Of a stretch of 64,000 nucleotides of DNA, positions 16,561 through 54,669 are shown piece after piece. The stretch is taken from contig JAIOYF010000014.1 of the NCBI GenBank assembly GCA_021741245.1, forward strand, positions 1 to 64,000, given 5' to 3'. This stretch comes from Paracoccaceae bacterium. Lineage in GTDB: Bacteria; Pseudomonadota; Alphaproteobacteria; Rhodobacterales; Rhodobacteraceae. Made by a program: the position numbers and the translations under genes. Position 1 is the first letter of the stretch, and every line of letters starts with the position of its first letter. The notes under the pieces are model-generated. The model was given only the letters and a program-made list of their open reading frames with translations, was not told the DNA's origin and ran no database searches.

Positions 16561-17958
16561 TCAGTAGCGATAATGCTCTGATTTGAACGGACCGTTGATG
16601 GCAACGCCGATATAGTCGGCCTGATCCTTGCGCAGTTCCGTCAGTTTCACACCGATCCGCTTTAGGTGCAGGCGGGCCACTTTTTCGTCCAGCTCTTTGG
16701 GCAGAATGTAGACGCCGGGGGCATAATCCGCGCCCTTGGTCCACAATTCAATCTGCGCCAAGACTTGGTTGGTGAACGAGGCAGACATCACGAAAGACGG
16801 GTGCCCAGTCGCGTTGCCAAGGTTCAGCAAACGACCTTCGGACAGCAAAATGATCCGGCTGCCCGAAGGCATTTCGATCATATCGACCTGTTCCTTGATG
16901 TTGGTCCACTTGTGGTTTTTCAGGGCGGCAACCTGAATTTCATTGTCGAAGTGGCCGATGTTGCCAACGATGGCCATATCCTTCATCTCGCGAATATGCT
17001 CGATGCGGATCACGTCCTTGTTGCCGGTCGTGGTGATGAAAATGTCCGCGCTGTCGACCACATCTTCCAGCAGCACAACCTCGAACCCATCCATAGCCGC
17101 CTGAAGCGCGCAGATCGGGTCAACCTCGGTCACCTTGACGCGGGCACCAGCCCCTTGCAACGACGCGGCCGAGCCTTTGCCCACATCGCCATAGCCGCAG
17201 ACGACGGCCACTTTGCCTGCCATCATGGTGTCGGTGGCACGGCGGATACCGTCCACCAGCGACTCCTTGCAACCATACTTGTTGTCGAACTTGGACTTGG
17301 TGACAGAGTCATTGACGTTGATTGCTGGGAAGGGCAGCTGGCCCTTTTTGTGCAGATCATACAGGCGATGCACACCCGTAGTCGTTTCCTCGGAAACGCC
17401 CTTGATCGCGGCGCGCTGTTTGGTGAACCATCCGGGGCTTGCTGCAAGGCGCTTTTTGATCTGGTTGAACAGGCACACCTCTTCATCCGAGGTTGGAACG
17501 GCAATCAAATCCGTCTCGCCAGCCTCAACCCGAGCGCCCATAAGAATGTAAAGCGTTGCGTCGCCGCCATCGTCCAAGATCATGTTGCACGTGCCGCCTT
17601 CGCCACCGAACTGGAAGATCTTGTCGGTATATTCCCAATATTCTTCCAGCGTTTCGCCCTTGATCGCAAAGACGGGGGTTCCGCTTGCGGCAATCGCCGC
17701 AGCTGCATGATCTTGGGTCGAGAAAATGTTGCAAGACGCCCAGCGAACATCCGCGCCAAGCGCCACGAGGGTTTCAATCAGGACGGCGGTTTGAACCGTC
17801 ATATGCAAAGAACCGGCGATCCGGGCCCCCGTCAACGGCTTGGATGTGCCGAATTCTTCACGGCACGACATCAAGCCCGGCATTTCCGTTTCCGCAATCG
17901 TCAGCTCTTTGCGCCCAAAATCTGCAAGAGCGATGTCCTTCACAATGTAATCGGGCAT
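16561..17958 (-). CDS. ahcY: Adenosylhomocysteinase (S-adenosylhomocysteine hydrolase)
   Basis: A 465-residue NAD-dependent cytosolic enzyme that splits S-adenosylhomocysteine into adenosine and homocysteine, removing the product inhibitor of methyltransferases. Visible motifs: [40 protein letters not shown] with the NAD-site Lys, the nucleotide-binding [20 protein letters not shown], and the C-terminal ...KSEHYRY end typical of the family. It lies beyond hvrA and an HD hydrolase in the regA region, an order also described for Rhodobacter capsulatus. I saw no convincing SAH riboswitch in the 5' leader. Confidence 0.97.
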
Positions 17959-41588: not shown

Positions 41589-42293
41589 TCAGCCGCGCTT
41601 CTTCCAGATCGCAGCGTCGCCCAGTTTATCCACAAAGGACAGATGAGCGTCAGCTTCGGCCTGTGTCAATCGCGTGGGCAGCGGCGTCGGGCGCGGCCTT
41701 GGCCGCCAATCGCCTGACGTGGCGAGGGACGAATTTGCCTGTTGGCCGGATCGGTTGCCTTGCGCCAGAACAAAGTCGGGCTGACGGCCGCCAACAAGTT
41801 CAAGATAGACCTCGGCCAAAATCTCGGAGTCCAGCAATGCCCCGTGTTTTTCACGGGCCGAGTTATCGACGCCAAAGCGACGGCACAGTGCGTCTAGGGA
41901 GGCTGGAGAGCCCGGAAACTTTGACCGTGCGATCATCAAAGTGTCGATGGCCTGATTGGTGGGAAGCAGGGCAAAACCTGCAGCCTTCAACTCGGCATTC
42001 AGAAACTTCATGTCGAACGCCGCATTGTGGATGACCAGCTTTGCATCCCCTACGAAATCAAGAAATGCCTGGCCGATGGCCCTGAACACCGGTTTGTCGC
42101 GCAAGAAATCATCGCCAAGGCCGTGCACATCGAACGCCTCTTTGGGCATCATGCGTTCGGGATTGATATACTGGTGATATGTTTTTCCGGTGGGCAGGTG
42201 GTTGAACAGTTCCACTGCGCCAATTTCGACAATGCGATGGCCTTCCGAAGGCTCAAAGCCCGTGGTTTCGGTATCGAGGACGATCTCACGCAT
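41589..42293 (-). CDS. dnaQ: DNA polymerase III epsilon subunit (proofreading exonuclease)
   Basis: A 234-residue 3'-5' exonuclease of the replicase core. Exo I is [13 protein letters not shown], Exo II is [14 protein letters not shown], and Exo III is [20 protein letters not shown] with the catalytic His and Asp. The C-terminal part with [20 protein letters not shown] is the polymerase-binding tail. It is the last gene of maf-aroE-coaE-dnaQ, overlapping coaE by eight bases. Confidence 0.95.
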
Positions 42294-42879: not shown

Positions 42880-43718
42880 AGGCCAAGAACCGCGTTTCTG
42901 GTTGCAACGTCAACTTCTGGTCTTTGGCCGAACCAACGCTCAAACCCCGGTGCTGCCTGATGGAGCAACATACCAAGCCCATCGACGATGGTGCAGCCCA
43001 TGCTTTCAGCCTCAATCAAGAATTGGGTCATCAGGGGGGTATAGACCAGATCCGTGACAACCGTGCCGGGGCGCAGGGCATCCAGGGGCACCCTGAAATC
43101 TGGCTTGCCCACCATTCCAAGCGATGTGGTGTTGACCACAAGTGCGGCCCCATCAAGCATATTTGCCGCCTGAACCCATTCACTGACCACGACTTTTGCG
43201 CCGAAATCCGAACGGATCGCCTCGGCCCTTGGTCGTGTGCGGTTGGCAAGGCGAATTTCGGGCACGCCCACCTCGATCAAGGCGGCAATCACCGCCCTGG
43301 CCGCACCACCAGCCCCCAAGACGGCAGCGGGGCCGTCAGTCGGGTTCCACCTTGGCGCGCCCTGCCGCAGGTTGGAGATGAACCCCGACCCATCGGTATT
43401 GTCGGCATGAATACGGCCATCCTTGCGAAAGATCAGTGTATTGGCCGCCCCGATCAGTGCCGCGCGGTCTGTAACAATATCCGCGATGCCCAAGACGGCC
43501 TCTTTGTGCGGGATGGTAATGTTCACCCCGACAAAGCCCATGCGCGGAAGATGCTCCAGCACACTTGCAAGATCGGCGGGTGATACGTCCATGGGGATAT
43601 AATGGCCACGGATGCCGTAGCGGCGCAGCCAATAGCCATGCAAGGCGGGCGACCTGCTGTGCGCAATCGGATGACCAATCACGCCTGCCAATGGAATTCG
43701 AGGGTGGTCACTTGTCAT
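42876..43718 (-). CDS. aroE: Shikimate dehydrogenase
   Basis: A 280-residue NADPH-dependent enzyme of the shikimate pathway (3-dehydroshikimate to shikimate). The substrate site is seen in [20 protein letters not shown], the catalytic Lys in [14 protein letters not shown] and the Asp in [10 protein letters not shown]; the cofactor loop is [15 protein letters not shown] with NRTRPRAEA. It overlaps maf and coaE at both ends by four bases. Confidence 0.95.
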
Positions 43719-44308
43719 TGTTCAACGATGCCTCGCTCTGCGAGATAAACCAGAAGGGGGAGAAGGGGAAGGCCAAGCACAGAGAAGTAATCGCCGTCGA
43801 CTGCGGAAAACAGGCGCGCGCCTTCTTCCTCCAGCTTGTAGGCACCAACACTGTGACGAACACTTTGCCAGTTTCTGCTCAGATAATCCGCCAGATAGGC
43901 ATCGGAAAAATCGCGCATGGTCAGATGGACCTCTGTCACAATCCGCCAGATGGGTTTTGCCTGATGATAAAGCACAGCGGCTGACAGTAGCGTGTGGCGT
44001 TGATTGCGAAGTTGCTCAAGTTGATGGCGGGCTTCCTCGATGGTGTCAGGTTTTCCCCAAGCCTTGCCTTTGAATGCCAGCACCTGATCGCAGCCCAGAA
44101 CATAATCTGACGGGTGCCGATCCGCTACTTTTCGGCACTTCATCTCGGCCAGGGTGTCGGCGATGTCGCGGGGGGGCGCGCCCTCGGCCTCAAGGGCGCG
44201 ACGGATCGTTTCTTCGTCAATACGTGCAGGCATGGCTGTCACTGGCACGCCAGCGGCGCGCAACAGATCTAGCCGGATGGATGAGGACGACGCGAGAATG
44301 AGTGTCAT
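43715..44308 (-). CDS. maf: Maf-family nucleotide pyrophosphatase
   Basis: A 197-residue house-cleaning pyrophosphatase acting on nucleoside triphosphates. The N-terminal motif is [20 protein letters not shown], the catalytic Asp region [20 protein letters not shown], and [19 protein letters not shown] a family block. The start at 44308 (MTLILASSS) is preferred over 44338. It is the first gene of its operon, reading away from the origin candidate. Confidence 0.92.
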
Positions 44309-44723
44309 GGGGTGGTGGACAGCCCTGTGGATAGACACGCTTTGTTCCTGAGACGGATATTCGGGACAAGTGGCGTTTGCAGGGGCAAGGTGCCAGTGGG
44401 GCGGGATTTGTCAAGGTCGCCGAGGAAGATATCCCATTGTGGGCGAGGGAAGATGTGGGCTGTGGATGGAGAAACTATCCTGAAGCTGTGGTTCGTTTTG
44501 CTGACAGCACGGGGAATATCTGGGAGGTTTCAATATACTGAAAAACTGGTGAAGTTTATTTCTTATCCACAGATTTCACATGATATCCACAGACTTATCA
44601 GACCTTTTCCTGCTGTGCATGAAATGTGGGAAAACGGACGTAATCCCGATGTCCACAGGCCCAACAACATCATTCCTTTTCTCTGACTCTTTTATTAAAG
44701 AAGTGGAAAGCAAGGAGCCGCGG
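44309..44723. other. Candidate chromosomal origin of replication (oriC) with DnaA boxes
   Basis: A 415-base region without a gene, between the diverging maf and hemJ genes and more AT-rich than its surroundings. DnaA-box-like 9-mers (TTATCCACA): a perfect copy at 44563-44571; one-mismatch copies at 44583-44591 and, on the minus strand, 44326-44334; two-mismatch copies at 44461-44469 (minus), 44625-44633 (minus) and 44649-44657. An AT-rich stretch lies at 44500-44560 and TTTATTAAAG at 44691. Genes on both sides read away from it, and parAB with parS sites are 3-9 kb right. In other alphaproteobacteria the origin is also close to heme genes and maf. Confidence 0.75.
44563..44571 (+). promoter_or_regulatory. 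Perfect DnaA box
   Basis: TTATCCACA, the consensus DnaA-binding 9-mer, with the near match ATATCCACA 20 bases downstream at 44583-44591 in the same orientation, so the two face the same side of the helix roughly two turns apart. Confidence 0.75.
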
Positions 44724-45173
44724 ATGACTGACTTTCTGAGTGACTGGTATCTTTGGGCCAAGGCTTTGCACGTTATCTCGGTGATTGCCTGGATGGCTGG
44801 CCTGTTTTATTTGCCACGACTGTATGTCTACCACGTTGAGAGTGTCGTGTCGGGTAGCCCCACGGACGTCATGTTCCAAACCATGGAGCGGCGCTTGCTG
44901 CGAGGGATCATGGCCCCAGCGATGATCGCGACGTGGATCTTCGGGCTTTGTCTTGTTCTGACGCCCGGCATTGTCGATTGGTCGATGATCTGGCCCTGGA
45001 CGAAGGCCGCTTCCGTTTTGGCCATGACATGGTTTCACCAATGGCTTGGACTTCGCCGCAAGGACTTTCTGCTTGGCAATAATCAGGTGACGGGGCGTCA
45101 ATTCCGCTTGATGAATGAAGTGCCGACCCTGCTTTTGCTTGTGATCGTTTTTTCAGTCATCGTGAAATTCTGA
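44724..45173 (+). CDS. hemJ: Protoporphyrinogen IX oxidase HemJ
   Basis: A 149-residue membrane enzyme of heme synthesis (protoporphyrinogen to protoporphyrin). It has four transmembrane segments; the conserved His is in WAKALHVISVIAWMAGLFYL and YLPRLYVYHVE follows; a later helix contains WSMIWPWTKAASVLAMTWFH and the C-terminus NEVPTLLLLVIVFSVIVKF. AAGGAG lies six bases before ATG 44724; a frame open from 44580 runs through the origin candidate and is rejected. hemE, often next to hemJ in relatives, is not here. Confidence 0.9.
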   Translation: MTDFLSDWYLWAKALHVISVIAWMAGLFYLPRLYVYHVESVVSGSPTDVMFQTMERRLLRGIMAPAMIATWIFGLCLVLTPGIVDWSMIWPWTKAASVLAMTWFHQWLGLRRKDFLLGNNQVTGRQFRLMNEVPTLLLLVIVFSVIVKF

Positions 45174-47886: not shown

Positions 47887-49761
47887 ATGTTTCACGTGAA
47901 ACACTATGATGTCGTTGTTATCGGTGGTGGTCATGCCGGAGTTGAGGCTGCTGCCGCATCCTGTCGCGTTGGCGCCAAAACAGCGCTTATTACGCTGCGT
48001 CTGGCCGGAATCGGGGTGATGTCCTGCAATCCTGCGATCGGCGGCCTCGGTAAGGGTCATTTGGTCCGTGAGATTGACGCTATGGATGGCCTAATGGCTA
48101 GGGCAGCCGATGAGGCCGGCATTCAATTCCGTCTTTTGAATCGGAGAAAAGGCCCAGCGGTGCAAGGCCCGCGCGCGCAGGCCGACAGATCGATCTATCG
48201 GTCAGCGGTGCAGAAACTTTTGGCTCAGGAAGAGAACCTCACCCTTTTGGAAGGAGAGGTTTGCGACATTCGCACGGAGGATGGACGCGTTTGCGCGGTG
48301 ACATTGGCTGACGGTTCTGATGTGCGTTGTTCCAGAGTTGTTTTGACGGCTGGAACATTCCTGAACGGGATCATTCATATTGGTCCCGAAAAGCGTCCTG
48401 GCGGTAGAATTGGGGATGCCCCATCCAACAAACTAGGAGCACGTTTGTCGGATTTAGGCTTGGCGCGCGGAAGATTGAAAACGGGAACACCGCCTCGTTT
48501 GGATGGGAGAACAATAGATTGGGATAAAGTTGGGCGGCAACCGGGAGATGAAGACCCTGTCGTCTTCTCATTCTTGAACAAGGGGCCCAAGGTTCGGCAA
48601 GTAGATTGTGGAATAACCCACACCAATGAGAGGACGCATGAGATTGTGCGCCAGAATCTTGGTAAATCTGCTATGTACGGAGGCCACATCGAAGGGATTG
48701 GTCCCCGGTATTGCCCGTCGATTGAGGACAAGATTGTTCGGTTTGCAGATAAGACCAGCCATCAGGTCTTTCTGGAACCAGAAGGCCTTGATGATCACAC
48801 GATCTATCCAAATGGGATTTCATCCTCTCTTCCTCTGGAAATCCAAGAGCAGTATGTCCGTAGCATCGAAGGCCTAGAGAATGCAGTAATTTTGCAGCCA
48901 GCCTATGCTATTGAATATGACTATTTTGATCCAAGAGGTCTTACACCTTCCATGGAACTGCGCGATCTGCCCGGTTTGTACTTGGCGGGTCAGATAAATG
49001 GTACGACCGGCTATGAAGAGGCGGCCGCCCAAGGCTTGGTCGCAGGATTAAATGCGGCAAAAGCTGCCTTAGGTGGGGAGTCAGTCCTTTTCCATCGTTC
49101 TGAAAGCTATATTGGCGTGATGCTGGATGATCTTTTGTCGCATGGCGTGACGGAACCCTATCGAATGTTCACGTCCCGTGCTGAGTATCGGTTGCATTTG
49201 CGCGCAGACAACGCGGATCAACGCCTGACACCACATGGTATTCGAGTTGGTTGCGTTCGCGTGGGTAGGCAGCAAATTTTTGAGACGAAGCTTGGCCAAC
49301 TTGAACTTGGGAGGGCTGCGCTTGGGGCAATAAGCTTCACGTCGCGCGATCTTGCTGGCTTTGGTGTACGCGTAAGTGAGGATGGAGTGCGGCGGAGTGG
49401 CCTTGATGTTCTTGGATCGCTTAGTCTCGATGAGGAACTTCTTAGAACGATTATTCCGTTGCTAGACACTATGGATCCGGCCATTCGGCAACAAATAACC
49501 TATGACTCAATCTACAGTCGGTATCTTGGCCGTCAGGAGTCCCAAGTCGCTCAGCTAAAGCGCGAAGAGGCAACAGCAATTCCACTTGAATTTGATTATG
49601 GGGCGCTTTCTGGTCTCTCAAACGAATTGCGTGCAAAGCTTGAACGCAATCGGCCACCAACACTCTCGCATGCTTCGAGGATCGAAGGAATGACACCAGC
49701 TGCCTTAGCGCTCATTCTTGCTTCGCTCCGCAAAGTGCAAGGTGAGAGGGTTGCTTCCTGA
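47887..49761 (+). CDS. mnmG: tRNA modification enzyme MnmG (GidA)
   Basis: A 624-residue FAD protein, partner of MnmE. The FAD motif is [17 protein letters not shown]; later blocks are [48 protein letters not shown] and [20 protein letters not shown]. The first six codons, coding MFHVKH, are written by a parS site, so the start at 47887 is fixed by it; a longer frame from 47830 overlaps mnmE. Codon use here and in rsmG/parA looks less GC-biased than in distant genes of the window. Confidence 0.97.
47888..47903. promoter_or_regulatory. parS site 1 (at mnmG start)
   Basis: TGTTTCACGTGAAACA, a perfect 16-bp palindrome identical to the general ParB-binding parS consensus. It begins one base into the mnmG start codon and supplies the codons for FHVKH. 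Confidence 0.95.
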
Positions 49762-50381
49762 TGGGTGATAAGATCGAAGACCTTGTAAACAGTGTTTCAC
49801 GTGAAACATCTGCGATGTTGGCGACCTACTCTGATATGATAAGGAGATGGAATCCTGCAATTAATCTCGTATCGAAGCAAAGCGTTGGGGAGTTGTTCGA
49901 GCGACACATTCTGGATTCCTTTCAGATTCTGAGTAATCCACTGATACCTCTTGGTCGTTGGGTCGACCTAGGATCAGGTGGGGGCCTCCCCGGTTTGGTC
50001 GTTGCTATAGACGCAAAGGACAAGTCCATTGATCGACATGTCGTGCTCGTAGAGTCAGATCAAAGAAAAGCGACCTTCTTGAGGGAGGTGATAAGAACAC
50101 TTGATCTCGATGCAGTGGTCATTGCAGATCGCATCGAAGCCATTGAACCACTTTCCTCACCCGTTGTATCCGCCAGAGCGCTAGCCCCTCTGGCCGAGCT
50201 TTGTGGCTTTGCTCAACGACATCTCGTAAGCGGTGGGATGGCGATTTTTCATAAAGGTGGCAGCCGCGCAGCAGAGATCGATCAGGCAAGGGCGGTCTGG
50301 AACTTTGACCTCGTGGAAATTCCAAGTGTGACCAGCCCAGAATCCGCAATTTTGTATCTAAGGAGCCTGCGGCATGTCTGA
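49761..50381 (+). CDS. rsmG: 16S rRNA m7G527 methyltransferase RsmG (GidB)
   Basis: A 206-residue S-adenosylmethionine-dependent enzyme that methylates G527 of 16S rRNA. NPAINLVSKQSVGELFERHI and WVDLGSGGGLPGLVVAID (motif I) are typical; VVSARALAPLAELCGFA and FHKGG follow. Its start overlaps the mnmG stop by one base. Codons 12-16 (VSRET) are encoded by the second parS site. Confidence 0.95.
   Translation: MGDKIEDLVNSVSRETSAMLATYSDMIRRWNPAINLVSKQSVGELFERHILDSFQILSNPLIPLGRWVDLGSGGGLPGLVVAIDAKDKSIDRHVVLVESDQRKATFLREVIRTLDLDAVVIADRIEAIEPLSSPVVSARALAPLAELCGFAQRHLVSGGMAIFHKGGSRAAEIDQARAVWNFDLVEIPSVTSPESAILYLRSLRHV
49793..49808. promoter_or_regulatory. parS site 2 (inside rsmG)
   Basis: TGTTTCACGTGAAACA, a perfect parS palindrome within the 5' end of rsmG, where it codes SVSRET in frame. 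Confidence 0.95.
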
Positions 50382-51186
50382 TCGAGACCCACAGAAAGCT
50401 CCTCGACTTATCGCGGTAGCGAACCAGAAGGGTGGTGTCGGAAAAACCACCACAACGATAAACGTGGCCGCTGGTCTTGCCGAGTTTGGATACAAGGTTC
50501 TTTTGATCGACCTCGATCCACAGGGGAACGCATCGACGGGACTTGGAATAGAATCTTCACAAAGACACAAGACCACCTATGATCTGTTGCTTGAAGAGGC
50601 GCCGATTGAGGCGCTTATCCTACCGTCAAGCGTGCGAAATCTGAGCGTTTGTCCCGCAAACGCGGACCTTGCCTCCGCAGATATAGAACTCGTTTCCAAT
50701 GAAAAGAGGTCGTTTCTCTTGCATGATGCACTTCATGCCAAGGGTGCGCTTGAGATGGGAATGGACTTTATCCTTATTGACTGTCCGCCATCGCTTTCGC
50801 TTTTGACCGTCAATGCGCTTGTTGCTGCCCAATCTGTATTGATCCCACTCCAAAGCGAGTTTTTTGCCCTTGAAGGACTTTCGCAACTCATGTTGACGAT
50901 CCGGGATATTCGGAAGACCGCTAATCCGTCTCTTCGGATCGAGGGGGTTGTGATCACGATGGCCGATGGTCGCAATCGGCTTTCACAGCAAGTGGAGGCG
51001 GACGCTCGCGATACTTTGGGCGATTTGGTCTTTGAGACGACGATCCCTCGAAATGTTCGGGTATCAGAAGCGCCATCTTATGCATTGCCGGTACTCTCGT
51101 ACGACCCTTCATCAAAGGGCGCAGACGCCTACCGGCGGCTTACAATGGAAATCGTGGCACGACATTCCAGTGTTCAAGTCAAATAG
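50374..51186 (+). CDS. parA: Chromosome partitioning ATPase ParA
   Basis: A 270-residue Walker-type ATPase that forms a nucleoid gradient moving the ParB-parS origin complex. The deviant Walker A is IAVANQKGGVGKTTTTINVA; VLLIDLDPQGNASTGLG and DFILIDCPPSLSLLTVNALV follow. It overlaps rsmG by eight bases and is 13 bases before parB. Confidence 0.96.
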   Translation: MSDRDPQKAPRLIAVANQKGGVGKTTTTINVAAGLAEFGYKVLLIDLDPQGNASTGLGIESSQRHKTTYDLLLEEAPIEALILPSSVRNLSVCPANADLASADIELVSNEKRSFLLHDALHAKGALEMGMDFILIDCPPSLSLLTVNALVAAQSVLIPLQSEFFALEGLSQLMLTIRDIRKTANPSLRIEGVVITMADGRNRLSQQVEADARDTLGDLVFETTIPRNVRVSEAPSYALPVLSYDPSSKGADAYRRLTMEIVARHSSVQVK

Positions 51187-51199
51187 ACAGGGGTTGTAA

Positions 51200-52114
51200 A
51201 TGGAAAAGAAACTCGAACGAAAAGGTCTTGGGCGTGGACTTTCCGCCCTTATGGCTGACGTGAACCTTTCTCCTGCTGACGGAACAAATGTCTCTGGTCA
51301 GAGGGACGGATCCAACACAATGATCCCGGTTGAGCAGATCAGGCCCAATCCAGATCAGCCCAGGCGTGATTTCGATCCAGAGGCCCTACAGGAATTATCC
51401 GACTCTATCAGGGCAAAAGGGATAATTCAGCCCCTTGTGGTCCGTTTGGTAGATGACGGTCAGATGTATGAAATCGTTGCCGGTGAAAGACGTTGGCGGG
51501 CTGCGCAACTTGCCCAGTTGCACTCGGTCCCGGTGGTTGTCCGCGAATTTACGGATTTAGAAGTCATCGAGATAGCGATTATTGAAAACATCCAAAGGGC
51601 AGATCTGAACGCTGTCGAAGAAGCGCTTGGATTTCGGCAATTGATGGACCGTTTTGGCCATACGCAAGAAAAGTTGGCAGAGGCTCTGTCCAAGAGCAGA
51701 AGTCACATAGCCAATACCCTAAGGCTTCTGGTCCTCCCGGACGACGTGCAGATGATGATTCGTACGGGAAAGCTGACGGCCGGTCACGCTAGAGCGATCA
51801 TTGGCGCGGCCCAGCCAACCGCACTGGCCCAGCAGGTGGTGTCCAGTGGACTTTCCGTGCGCGAGACAGAAAAGCTTGCCAAGAATCTGTCAGGTAAGTC
51901 AGGCAACAAGAAGACGCGATCCGGGCCTTCTGAAAAAGACGCCGACACACGCGCGATCGAGGCAGACCTTTCGGCCAATTTGGGCATGTCCGTCTCCATT
52001 GATCACGGCGCTGCAGGAGATGGCGGCACGCTGCGTATAAGATACCGCACCTTGGATGACTTGGATCTGCTGTGTCAGGTCCTAAGTGTCATCCCACGTG
52101 ACTTTCCTCGCTAG
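51200..52114 (+). CDS. parB: Chromosome partitioning protein ParB
   Basis: A 304-residue CTP-dependent clamp that loads at parS. The N-terminal nuclease-like/CTP domain has IRPNPDQPRRDFDPEALQEL, GIIQPLVVR and the arginine patch EIVAGERRWRAAQLA; IENIQRADLNAVEEALGFR and a helix-turn-helix (TQEKLAEALSKSRSHIANTL) follow, then a dimerisation tail. Its targets, three parS sites, are in this window. The gene starts MEKKLERKGLGRGLSALMAD, typical for chromosomal ParB. Confidence 0.96.
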   Translation: MEKKLERKGLGRGLSALMADVNLSPADGTNVSGQRDGSNTMIPVEQIRPNPDQPRRDFDPEALQELSDSIRAKGIIQPLVVRLVDDGQMYEIVAGERRWRAAQLAQLHSVPVVVREFTDLEVIEIAIIENIQRADLNAVEEALGFRQLMDRFGHTQEKLAEALSKSRSHIANTLRLLVLPDDVQMMIRTGKLTAGHARAIIGAAQPTALAQQVVSSGLSVRETEKLAKNLSGKSGNKKTRSGPSEKDADTRAIEADLSANLGMSVSIDHGAAGDGGTLRIRYRTLDDLDLLCQVLSVIPRDFPR

Positions 52115-53337: not shown

Positions 53338-53353
53338 TGTTTCACGTGAAACA
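53338..53353. promoter_or_regulatory. parS site 3 (at rdgB stop)
   Basis: TGTTTCACGTGAAACA, the third perfect parS palindrome, lying across the end of rdgB (minus strand), where it writes the final Cys-Phe-Thr-stop. Confidence 0.95.
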
Positions 53354-53950
53354 ACCCGTGACAAGCTTTCGGAATGCATCGGCGCGATGGCTAATCTCGT
53401 TTTTTTGCCAGCGATCCATCTCTCCAAACGTCACGTCAAATCCGTCTGGCTGGAAAATAGGATCGTATCCATGGCCTTGGCTTCCACGCATCGGCCAAAC
53501 AATCTGGCCCGCCATCACGCCCTCAAAGACCTCATCATGACCATCTGGCCATGCCAGAACCAGGGTACACCGAAATTGAGCCAGCCTTGGAAACAAAGCA
53601 TGAACATTTTCAAGCTCTCGCCATGTCCGTGTCATGGCCATCTCGAAATCCCGACCATGCCCTGTTTCAGCCCAATCGGCAGTATAGACCCCTGGCTGTC
53701 CGGCGAGGGCATCTACGCAAATCCCTGAATCGTCCGCAAGCGCGGGCAGCCCAGCTTGCTTGGCGGCGAAATGCGCCTTGATCCTCGCATTGCCAACAAA
53801 GCTGTCTTCTGTCTCTTCCGGTTCAGGTAAACCCAGATCTCCCGCCGAGACGACAGAAAGCCCGAAAGGCTGGAGAAGTTTCTCAATTTCCTCCAACTTC
53901 CCTTTGTTGTGTGACGCAACGACGATGCGATCTCCGGCGAACTTTCGCAT
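53342..53950 (-). CDS. rdgB: Non-canonical purine NTP pyrophosphatase RdgB
   Basis: A 202-residue enzyme that removes ITP, dITP and XTP from the nucleotide pool. IVVASHNKGKLEEIEKLLQP is the substrate loop, LADDSGICVDALAGQPGVYT the core, and GHGYDPIFQPDGFDVTFGEM and SHRADAFRKL family blocks. The ATG at 53950 is favoured over a TTG two codons before. It follows rph by a few bases and ends inside a parS site. Confidence 0.95.
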   Translation of the reverse strand: MRKFAGDRIVVASHNKGKLEEIEKLLQPFGLSVVSAGDLGLPEPEETEDSFVGNARIKAHFAAKQAGLPALADDSGICVDALAGQPGVYTADWAETGHGRDFEMAMTRTWRELENVHALFPRLAQFRCTLVLAWPDGHDEVFEGVMAGQIVWPMRGSQGHGYDPIFQPDGFDVTFGEMDRWQKNEISHRADAFRKLVTGCFT

Positions 53951-53952
53951 GA

Positions 53953-54669
53953 TCAAAGCCCCAGTGCGGCCTTTTGCGCTGCGACAAGCGCCGTGGCGCC
54001 TGCCTCAGCCAAATCCAACAGCTCCGCCATTTCCGCGCGCGAGAATGTCGCTCCCTCTGCCGACATTTGTACCTCGATCATGCGCCCACGGCCGGTCAAC
54101 ACAAAGTTTCCATCCGTGCCGGCAGCTGAATCCTCTGGATAGTCCAGATCCAAAACGGGCTGACCTGCGAAAATCCCGCAAGATACGGCTGCCACATGAT
54201 CGATGATCGGATCACTGACTATGGCCCCCGAGGCGAGCAGCTTGTTCACGGCCAACCGAAGCGCAACCCAACCACCGGTGATTGAGGCGCACCGCGTCCC
54301 ACCATCCGCTTGAATGACGTCGCAATCCACAACAATCTGCCGTTCACCAAGAGCGCTGCGGTCTACGCCCGCGCGCAGGGCTCTGCCGATCAACCGCTGA
54401 ATTTCCTGCGTACGACCACTTTGTTTTCCTGCGGCTGCCTCTCGGCGTGTCCGACTGTTGGTGGCGCGTGGCAGCATCCCGTATTCAGCGGTCACCCAAC
54501 CCAAGCCGCTGTTCTTCAGGAATGGCGGCGCCTTGTCTTCGATCGTGGCCGAGCATAAGACATGCGTCTCGCCAACTTTGATCAGACACGATCCCTCTGC
54601 GTGGCGCATGACACCAGTTTCAATAGAAACGGGCCGCATTTCGTCTAGTTTCCGTCCAGATGGGCGCAT
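53953..54669 (-). CDS. rph: Ribonuclease PH
   Basis: A 238-residue phosphorolytic 3'-5' exoribonuclease that trims tRNA and other RNA ends. It begins [19 protein letters not shown] and contains [36 protein letters not shown] (phosphate site) and [25 protein letters not shown] is before ATG 54669; the frame from 54768 is an upstream extension. It heads the rph-rdgB-hemW group and is divergent from hrcA. Confidence 0.95.

What the first reader, a model, noticed from the sequence alone, without database searches (positions are those of the whole stretch)
44309..44723. Likely chromosomal replication origin between maf and hemJ
A gene-free, AT-rich 415-base region carries one perfect and several near-perfect DnaA boxes. 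The genes on either side (maf-aroE-coaE-dnaQ to the left, hemJ-rho-mnmE-mnmG-rsmG-parAB to the right) read away from it, as expected for leading strands. Position near heme genes and parABS fits alphaproteobacterial origins.
Basis: partly seen in the sequence, partly recalled or inferred. Interest (0 to 1): 0.8.

Follow-up and report, generated by a model that had tools for sequence, protein, structure and literature searches.

The report
Chromosome replication origin between maf and hemJ
This short stretch between two genes is almost certainly where this alphaproteobacterium starts copying its chromosome; such origins are expected and already predicted in its relatives, but a regular three-base pattern beside its last DnaA site may be a variant of a known DNA-opening signal.

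Summary
In detail: 44309-44723 is a 415-bp gap between divergent maf and hemJ, with one perfect and three one-mismatch DnaA boxes. None of 1.73 million 409-bp windows sampled from this and five related genomes held as many. The same gap in 99 loci (this one and 98 relatives) carries 36 times the box density of its flanks. Three perfect parS sites, the genome's only ones within one mismatch, lie 3-9 kb to the right. Sampled GC skew in three relatives puts the best-fit origin 22-92 kb from hemJ. In two distant alphaproteobacteria the box cluster of this gene block lies between hemE and COG1806, the Caulobacter position; here COG1806 was not found and hemE is on another contig. Hence: a Caulobacter-type oriC whose flanking genes left. 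Against it: the window's own skew does not change sign at 44 kb, and no CtrA or IHF consensus was found. One unexpected feature: a conserved period-3 array (CAA-CAA-CAT-CAT) four bases after the last box, placed like B. subtilis DnaA-trios but without their fixed middle adenine. That reading is post hoc; a test of the published trio pattern was negative.

The parts
44309..44723 (.). oriC: gene-free gap between maf (-) and hemJ (+)
44326..44334 (-). DnaA box CTATCCACA, left-end box next to maf
   Evidence: minus-strand boxes 0-20 bp from maf recur in relatives
44461..44469 (-). weak DnaA box CCATCCACA (2 mismatches)
   Evidence: marginal
44527..44566 (.). AT-rich stretch (75% AT) overlapping the start of the perfect box; first candidate unwinding site
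   Evidence: mean AT peak 160-200 bp upstream of hemJ over 96 gaps
44563..44571 (+). perfect DnaA box TTATCCACA
44583..44591 (+). DnaA box ATATCCACA, 20 bp after the perfect one
   Evidence: alignment
44614..44622 (-). DnaA box TCATGCACA
44625..44633 (-). weak DnaA box TTTCCCACA (2 mismatches)
   Evidence: marginal
44649..44657 (+). last DnaA box ATGTCCACA (2 mismatches here; in 12 of 12 same-genus gaps examined the box at this place has 1 mismatch)
44658..44661 (.). 4-bp G+C spacer GGCC between last box and triplet array
   Evidence: spacer 4 in 31 of 70 placed gaps, 13 in 19, 14 in 7; 26 of 96 gaps could not be placed
44662..44673 (+). period-3 array CAA-CAA-CAT-CAT (CWW triplets); DnaA-trio-like element
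44674..44705 (.). pyrimidine/AT-rich stretch after the array; second, preferred candidate unwinding site
   Evidence: mean AT peak 20-60 bp upstream of hemJ over 96 gaps
43715..44308 (-). maf, left flank
44724..45173 (+). hemJ, right flank
47888..47903 (.). parS TGTTTCACGTGAAACA at the very start of mnmG
49793..49808 (.). parS near the start of rsmG
53338..53353 (.). parS at the end of the minus-strand ORF 53342-53956, right of parB
50374..52114 (+). parA and parB

Best explanation
It is the chromosomal oriC. DnaA binds the box cluster (44326 to 44657), oligomerises from the right-hand boxes, and opens AT-rich DNA, most likely to the right of the last box (array 44662-44673 and the stretch after it), so that helicase loads and two forks leave toward maf and toward hemJ. 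ParB on the three parS sites 3-9 kb away then moves the copied origins apart. Shown here by computation: box cluster, its conservation, parS sites, skew in relatives, synteny. Inferred: DnaA binding, the unwinding site, bidirectional firing, ParB loading.
For: Box density in 99 homologous gaps 8.96 per kb against 0.25 per kb in their flanks (perfect boxes 1.07 against 0.002 per kb); 98 of 99 gaps have at least one box and 86 of 99 at least three (rows). None of 1,732,737 sampled 409-bp windows reaches four boxes. Three perfect parS, the only sites with at most 1 mismatch in the genome. Sampled skew: best-fit origin 92, 22 and 50 kb from hemJ in G024, G001, G002; left samples negative in 28 of 31, right samples positive in 18 of 29. 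Same-genus contigs G011 and G020: left negative 14 of 20, right positive 6 of 8. Box clusters of distant relatives G051 and G057 lie in the hemE/COG1806 gap of the same gene block. dnaA is on another contig, with one lone one-mismatch box in the gap before it and no cluster.
Against: The window's own skew does not change sign at 44 kb: 22-39 kb is mostly positive, 52-60 kb mostly negative. The genome is a 27-contig draft, so its own cumulative skew was not drawn. In G024 the three samples at +92 to +452 kb stay slightly negative, and 11 of 29 right-arm samples over the three genomes are not positive. One homologous gap (L053) has no box at 1 mismatch and 12 others have only one or two. Six of 12 outlying loci show no cluster of four or more boxes. 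No TTAA-N6-8-TTAA and no IHF consensus in the region.
Confidence: 0.96

Rival explanations
1. The origin lies next to dnaA, as in many bacteria; the maf/hemJ gap is only a DnaA-titrating or DnaA-regulated site.
For: In G024, G001 and G002 dnaA lies about 82, 91 and 211 kb from hemJ, close enough that sampled skew cannot separate the two sharply; in G024 both places score 0.071.
Against: Around own dnaA (20 kb of C19) there are six scattered one-mismatch boxes and no cluster; hemJ scores higher than dnaA in G001 (0.070 against 0.060) and G002 (0.037 against 0.020); parS and parAB are at hemJ.
Confidence: 0.03
2. The gap is merely a two-way promoter region whose boxes serve DnaA control of hemJ or maf.
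For: Divergent genes need promoters; AT-rich ends fit promoters.
Against: Eleven Paracoccus loci without a maf match here keep a 392-531 bp gap beside aroE with two to six boxes; in the two distant genomes checked (G051, G057) the cluster lies in the hemE/COG1806 gap and not beside hemJ or maf.
Confidence: 0.01
3. The period-3 array at 44662 is coding: an N-terminal extension of HemJ (the frame is open from ATG 44580).
For: ORF 44580-45173 is in frame with hemJ; 39 of 96 gaps have no in-frame stop within 84 bp before hemJ.
Against: 57 of 96 gaps do have such a stop, and the offset of the array modulo 3 is spread 36/28/22 over 86 scored gaps.
Confidence: 0.02

Closest known systems
Caulobacter crescentus Cori (hemE/COG1806 gap; 404 bp; five DnaA boxes, five CtrA sites, one IHF site, according to PMC1914354, passages read)
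   Same: Length about 400 bp, box cluster, AT above genome average; the gene block maf-aroE-coaE-dnaQ on one side and rho-mnmE-mnmG-parAB on the other (Caulobacter gene order beyond hemE and COG1806 is recalled)
   Different: hemE is on another contig and COG1806 was not found in this genome, so the flanks are hemJ and maf; no CtrA full site or IHF consensus found
Rhodobacteraceae oriC as predicted with Ori-Finder plus manual curation for 101 of 109 closed genomes (PMC6699656, passages read)
   Same: Box cluster near parAB; same kinds of evidence
   Different: The passages read do not name maf/hemJ as flanks and report prediction, not experiment
Basal unwinding system (DnaA-box, spacer, DnaA-trios) of B. 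subtilis (PMC8287927, and PMC6669920; passages read)
   Same: Last box, 4-bp G+C spacer (or 13 bp, room for a second box), then a three-base repeat, then AT-rich DNA
   Different: Here the constant base of the array is C on the top strand (G on the other) and the middle position varies between A and T, while the described trio consensus is 3'-GAT-5' with a conserved middle adenine

Membership tests
Bacterial chromosomal oriC | Cluster of DnaA boxes in a gene-free region, above chance | tested here: met
   (at 1 mismatch; at 2 mismatches not unique in the window)
Bacterial chromosomal oriC | AT-rich stretch beside the boxes | tested here: met
   (75% AT 40-mer; right half in top 0.2%)
Bacterial chromosomal oriC | Lies at the GC-skew minimum of its chromosome | tested here: inconclusive
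   Own genome is a draft; three relatives agree within 22-92 kb at sample spacings of 100-280 kb; the window's local skew does not flip
Bacterial chromosomal oriC | Copy-number peak, DnaA binding, autonomous replication | not testable with these tools
   bench work needed
Bacterial chromosomal oriC | parS sites close by | tested here: met
Caulobacter-type Cori (hemE/COG1806) | Syntenic block maf-aroE-coaE-dnaQ / hemJ-rho around the cluster | tested here: met
   (no Caulobacter record itself was fetched)
Caulobacter-type Cori (hemE/COG1806) | hemE and COG1806 as direct flanks | tested here: not met
Caulobacter-type Cori (hemE/COG1806) | CtrA full sites TTAA-N7-TTAA | tested here: not met
   (one lone TTAA at 44695)
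Caulobacter-type Cori (hemE/COG1806) | IHF site | tested here: inconclusive
   strict consensus absent; degenerate sites not modelled
DnaA-trio / basal unwinding system | Box, spacer of 0-16 bp, then a three-base repeat | tested here: met
   (post hoc CWW definition)
DnaA-trio / basal unwinding system | At least three triplets with middle adenine, more than chance, anchored on the box | tested here: not met
   26 of 83 against 43.9 in shuffles; an unanchored test for runs of four was positive (83 of 96 against 50.8), though the other strand was too (46 against 13.8)
DnaA-trio / basal unwinding system | Array needed for DnaA-driven strand opening | not testable with these tools
   strand-separation assay needed

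The most novel reading that the evidence does not exclude
Origins of Rhodobacteraceae, and perhaps of many Alphaproteobacteria, open through a deviant DnaA-trio: a three-base array after the last DnaA box and a 4-bp (or 13-bp) spacer, in which the base fixed at every third position is G on the DnaA-bound strand (3'-GWW-5'), not a middle adenine. This would be the kind of deviant motif that the authors of PMC8287927 wrote they suspected.
Probability: 0.4. Interest if true: 0.55.

Novelty: new member of a known kind. Interest (0 to 1): 0.3.

Why it matters
It fixes the origin of a draft genome to a few hundred bases and gives a position (maf/hemJ) that can be read directly in draft genomes of the relatives. 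It explains that position as a Caulobacter-type origin whose two neighbours left. If the triplet array works in opening DNA, it would broaden the rule by which DnaA reads single strands.

Tried and rejected
Local skew of the window as proof of the origin: rejected, it does not flip at 44 kb. Third-codon-position skew split by strand: computed, not clearer than plain skew, not used. Origin beside dnaA: no cluster. CtrA, IHF and GATC sites: none found in the region; one GANTC at 44685. Published DnaA-trio pattern anchored on the box: 26 of 83, fewer than the 43.9 of shuffles; my choice of box there often fell on a more distant box, and shuffles of T-rich DNA give long runs, so I hold the test weak, but it stands against the trio reading. 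Period-3 C after boxes in 12 outlying loci: 9 of 61 boxes have a run of five or more against a shuffle mean of 1.4 (largest of 300 shuffles 6; 0 of 61 upstream); the hits come from 6 of 12 loci, some may lie in coding DNA, G runs were raised too (4 against 1.15), and four window boxes outside the region also show C runs of five or more, so this proves little alone. My combined motif CC[AT]AC-N0-9-CATCA is in 39 of 96 gaps (shuffle mean 0.2; 0 on the other strand), and the window has two further chance-like matches. Paper searches for a mapped Rhodobacteraceae origin or for this array listed none that I recognised as such from titles and abstract starts; six papers were opened, all by passages only.

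Full report
What is there. The window is the first 64,000 bases of contig C12 (81,612 bases) of a 27-contig draft of 4.2 Mb. The records that hold the 73 named relatives of its HemJ mostly bear Rhodobacteraceae or names of genera of that family (which genera belong is recalled). Between the minus-strand maf (ATG at 44308) and the plus-strand hemJ (ATG at 44724) lie 415 bases. They hold four DnaA boxes with at most one mismatch to TTATNCACA and three with two. The perfect box TTATCCACA occurs ten times in the whole genome, twice in this contig: at 44563 and, inside dnaQ, at 41626.

More than chance. In 90 sampled stretches of this genome and five relatives (1.77 Mb, the 99 gaps not among them) boxes occur at 0.25 per kb, and none of 1,732,737 overlapping 409-bp windows holds four; the most is three. 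At the looser level of two mismatches the region has seven, and another place in the window (near 17780) has nine, so the claim rests on the stricter level. The perfect box overlaps the end of the AT-rich 40-mer 44527-44566 (75% AT; 0.008% of window 40-mers are as rich). The whole gap is only moderately AT-rich, 51% against 43%.

Conservation. Of 103 loci examined (the window, 73, 29), 99 gave a gap between hemJ and maf, or aroE in eleven Paracoccus loci without a maf match. Of the 99, 86 are 390-450 bp long. Together they carry 8.96 boxes per kb against 0.25 in their flanks, and 47 perfect boxes in 44 kb. One gap, L053, has none at this threshold. Box places recur: a minus-strand box 0-20 bp from maf, and a group 70-160 bp before hemJ. 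The loci are related to each other, some nearly identical, so these counts are not independent events. Three of 15 same-genus genomes gave no HemJ match, all of them incomplete.

Other marks of an origin. Three perfect parS sites at 47888, 49793 and 53338 are the only ones with at most one mismatch in the genome. In six other genomes tested the perfect sites also lie within 9 kb of hemJ; two one-mismatch sites lie further off, about 33 kb in G006 and about 770 kb in G001 (positions). Spaced skew samples of three chromosomes put the best origin 92, 22 and 50 kb from hemJ, at sample spacings of 100-280 kb. Two same-genus contigs show mostly negative skew left and mostly positive right of hemJ. 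The window itself does not show this; local gene strands may mask a weak signal, which is inference.

Where it comes from. Twelve further loci were taken, ten from other families of the class and two from outlying members of this family. hemJ was found in 12 of 12 and rho in 11; in the 11 with some of the left block, 1.2-5.4 kb separate it from hemJ. A group of four or more boxes in 450 bp lies left of hemJ in 6 of 12; the other six have at most three. In G051 the boxes map to 3605403-3605665, inside the gap between hemE (ends 3605144) and COG1806 (starts 3605846); in G057 to about 444730-445043, inside 444441-445190 (positions converted; hemE and COG1806 are matches to PF01208 and PF03618). 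That is the place reported for Caulobacter Cori (PMC1914354, passages read). COG1806 was not found in G000, G020 or G024, and hemE lies elsewhere in these three. The simplest account is that the lineage lost COG1806 and moved hemE, so that maf and hemJ became the neighbours.

How it probably works. Boxes read as TTATCCACA point toward the side that is opened in E. coli and B. subtilis (recalled). By that rule the last box, 44649, points to the right-hand AT-rich stretch. Directly after it come GGCC and then CAA-CAA-CAT-CAT. Across 96 gaps the commonest letter at every third base here is C: 0.95, 0.90, 0.56, 0.98, 0.78, 0.74 at 44662, 665, 668, 671, 674, 677; the window itself has another letter at 44674 and 44677 (aligned by MAFFT). 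Runs of four or more CWW triplets occur in 45 of 96 right ends against 0.7 in dinucleotide shuffles, and in 0 of 96 on the other strand. In 70 of 96 gaps where both could be placed, the spacer from box to array is 4 bp in 31 and 13 bp in 19, which differ by the length of one box. Within the genus the letters between the fixed C vary (CTA, CAA, CAT). The array is unlikely to be coding. This is the layout of the basal unwinding system (PMC8287927, passages read) with another fixed base. The idea came after seeing the data, and the first test I ran, of the published trio pattern anchored on a box, was negative.

Known or new. Curated Ori-Finder predictions exist for 101 of 109 closed Rhodobacteraceae genomes (PMC6699656, passages read). 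The origin is therefore a new member of a known kind. The triplet array is the only part that might surprise a specialist; whether published trio searches already flag it in this family was not checked.

Noticed in passing
L076 near 4361 (contig C12 about 68.4 kb): A second, smaller group of three one-mismatch DnaA boxes in about 400 bp, 24 kb right of the origin; could be chance or a DnaA-titrating site.
   Followed up: no
window 41626-41634: A perfect TTATCCACA inside dnaQ, 3 kb left of the origin; two of the ten perfect boxes of the genome thus lie within 3 kb.
   Followed up: no
window 47888-47903 and 49793-49808: Two parS sites are built into the first codons of mnmG and the early codons of rsmG, so the protein starts carry them as coding sequence.
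   Followed up: partly
genome G000: TTATCCACA occurs 10 times against 18 for the reversed control pattern, which may hint at avoidance outside the origin.
   Followed up: no
window near 17780: Nine boxes with two or fewer mismatches in 400 bp, more than in the origin at that loose level.
   Followed up: no
L201 near 4674, L203 near 5263, L204 near 5194, L205 near 4991 (orientation): In distant alphaproteobacteria three-base repeats with a C every third base also follow a plus-strand box by 5-17 bases.
   Followed up: partly
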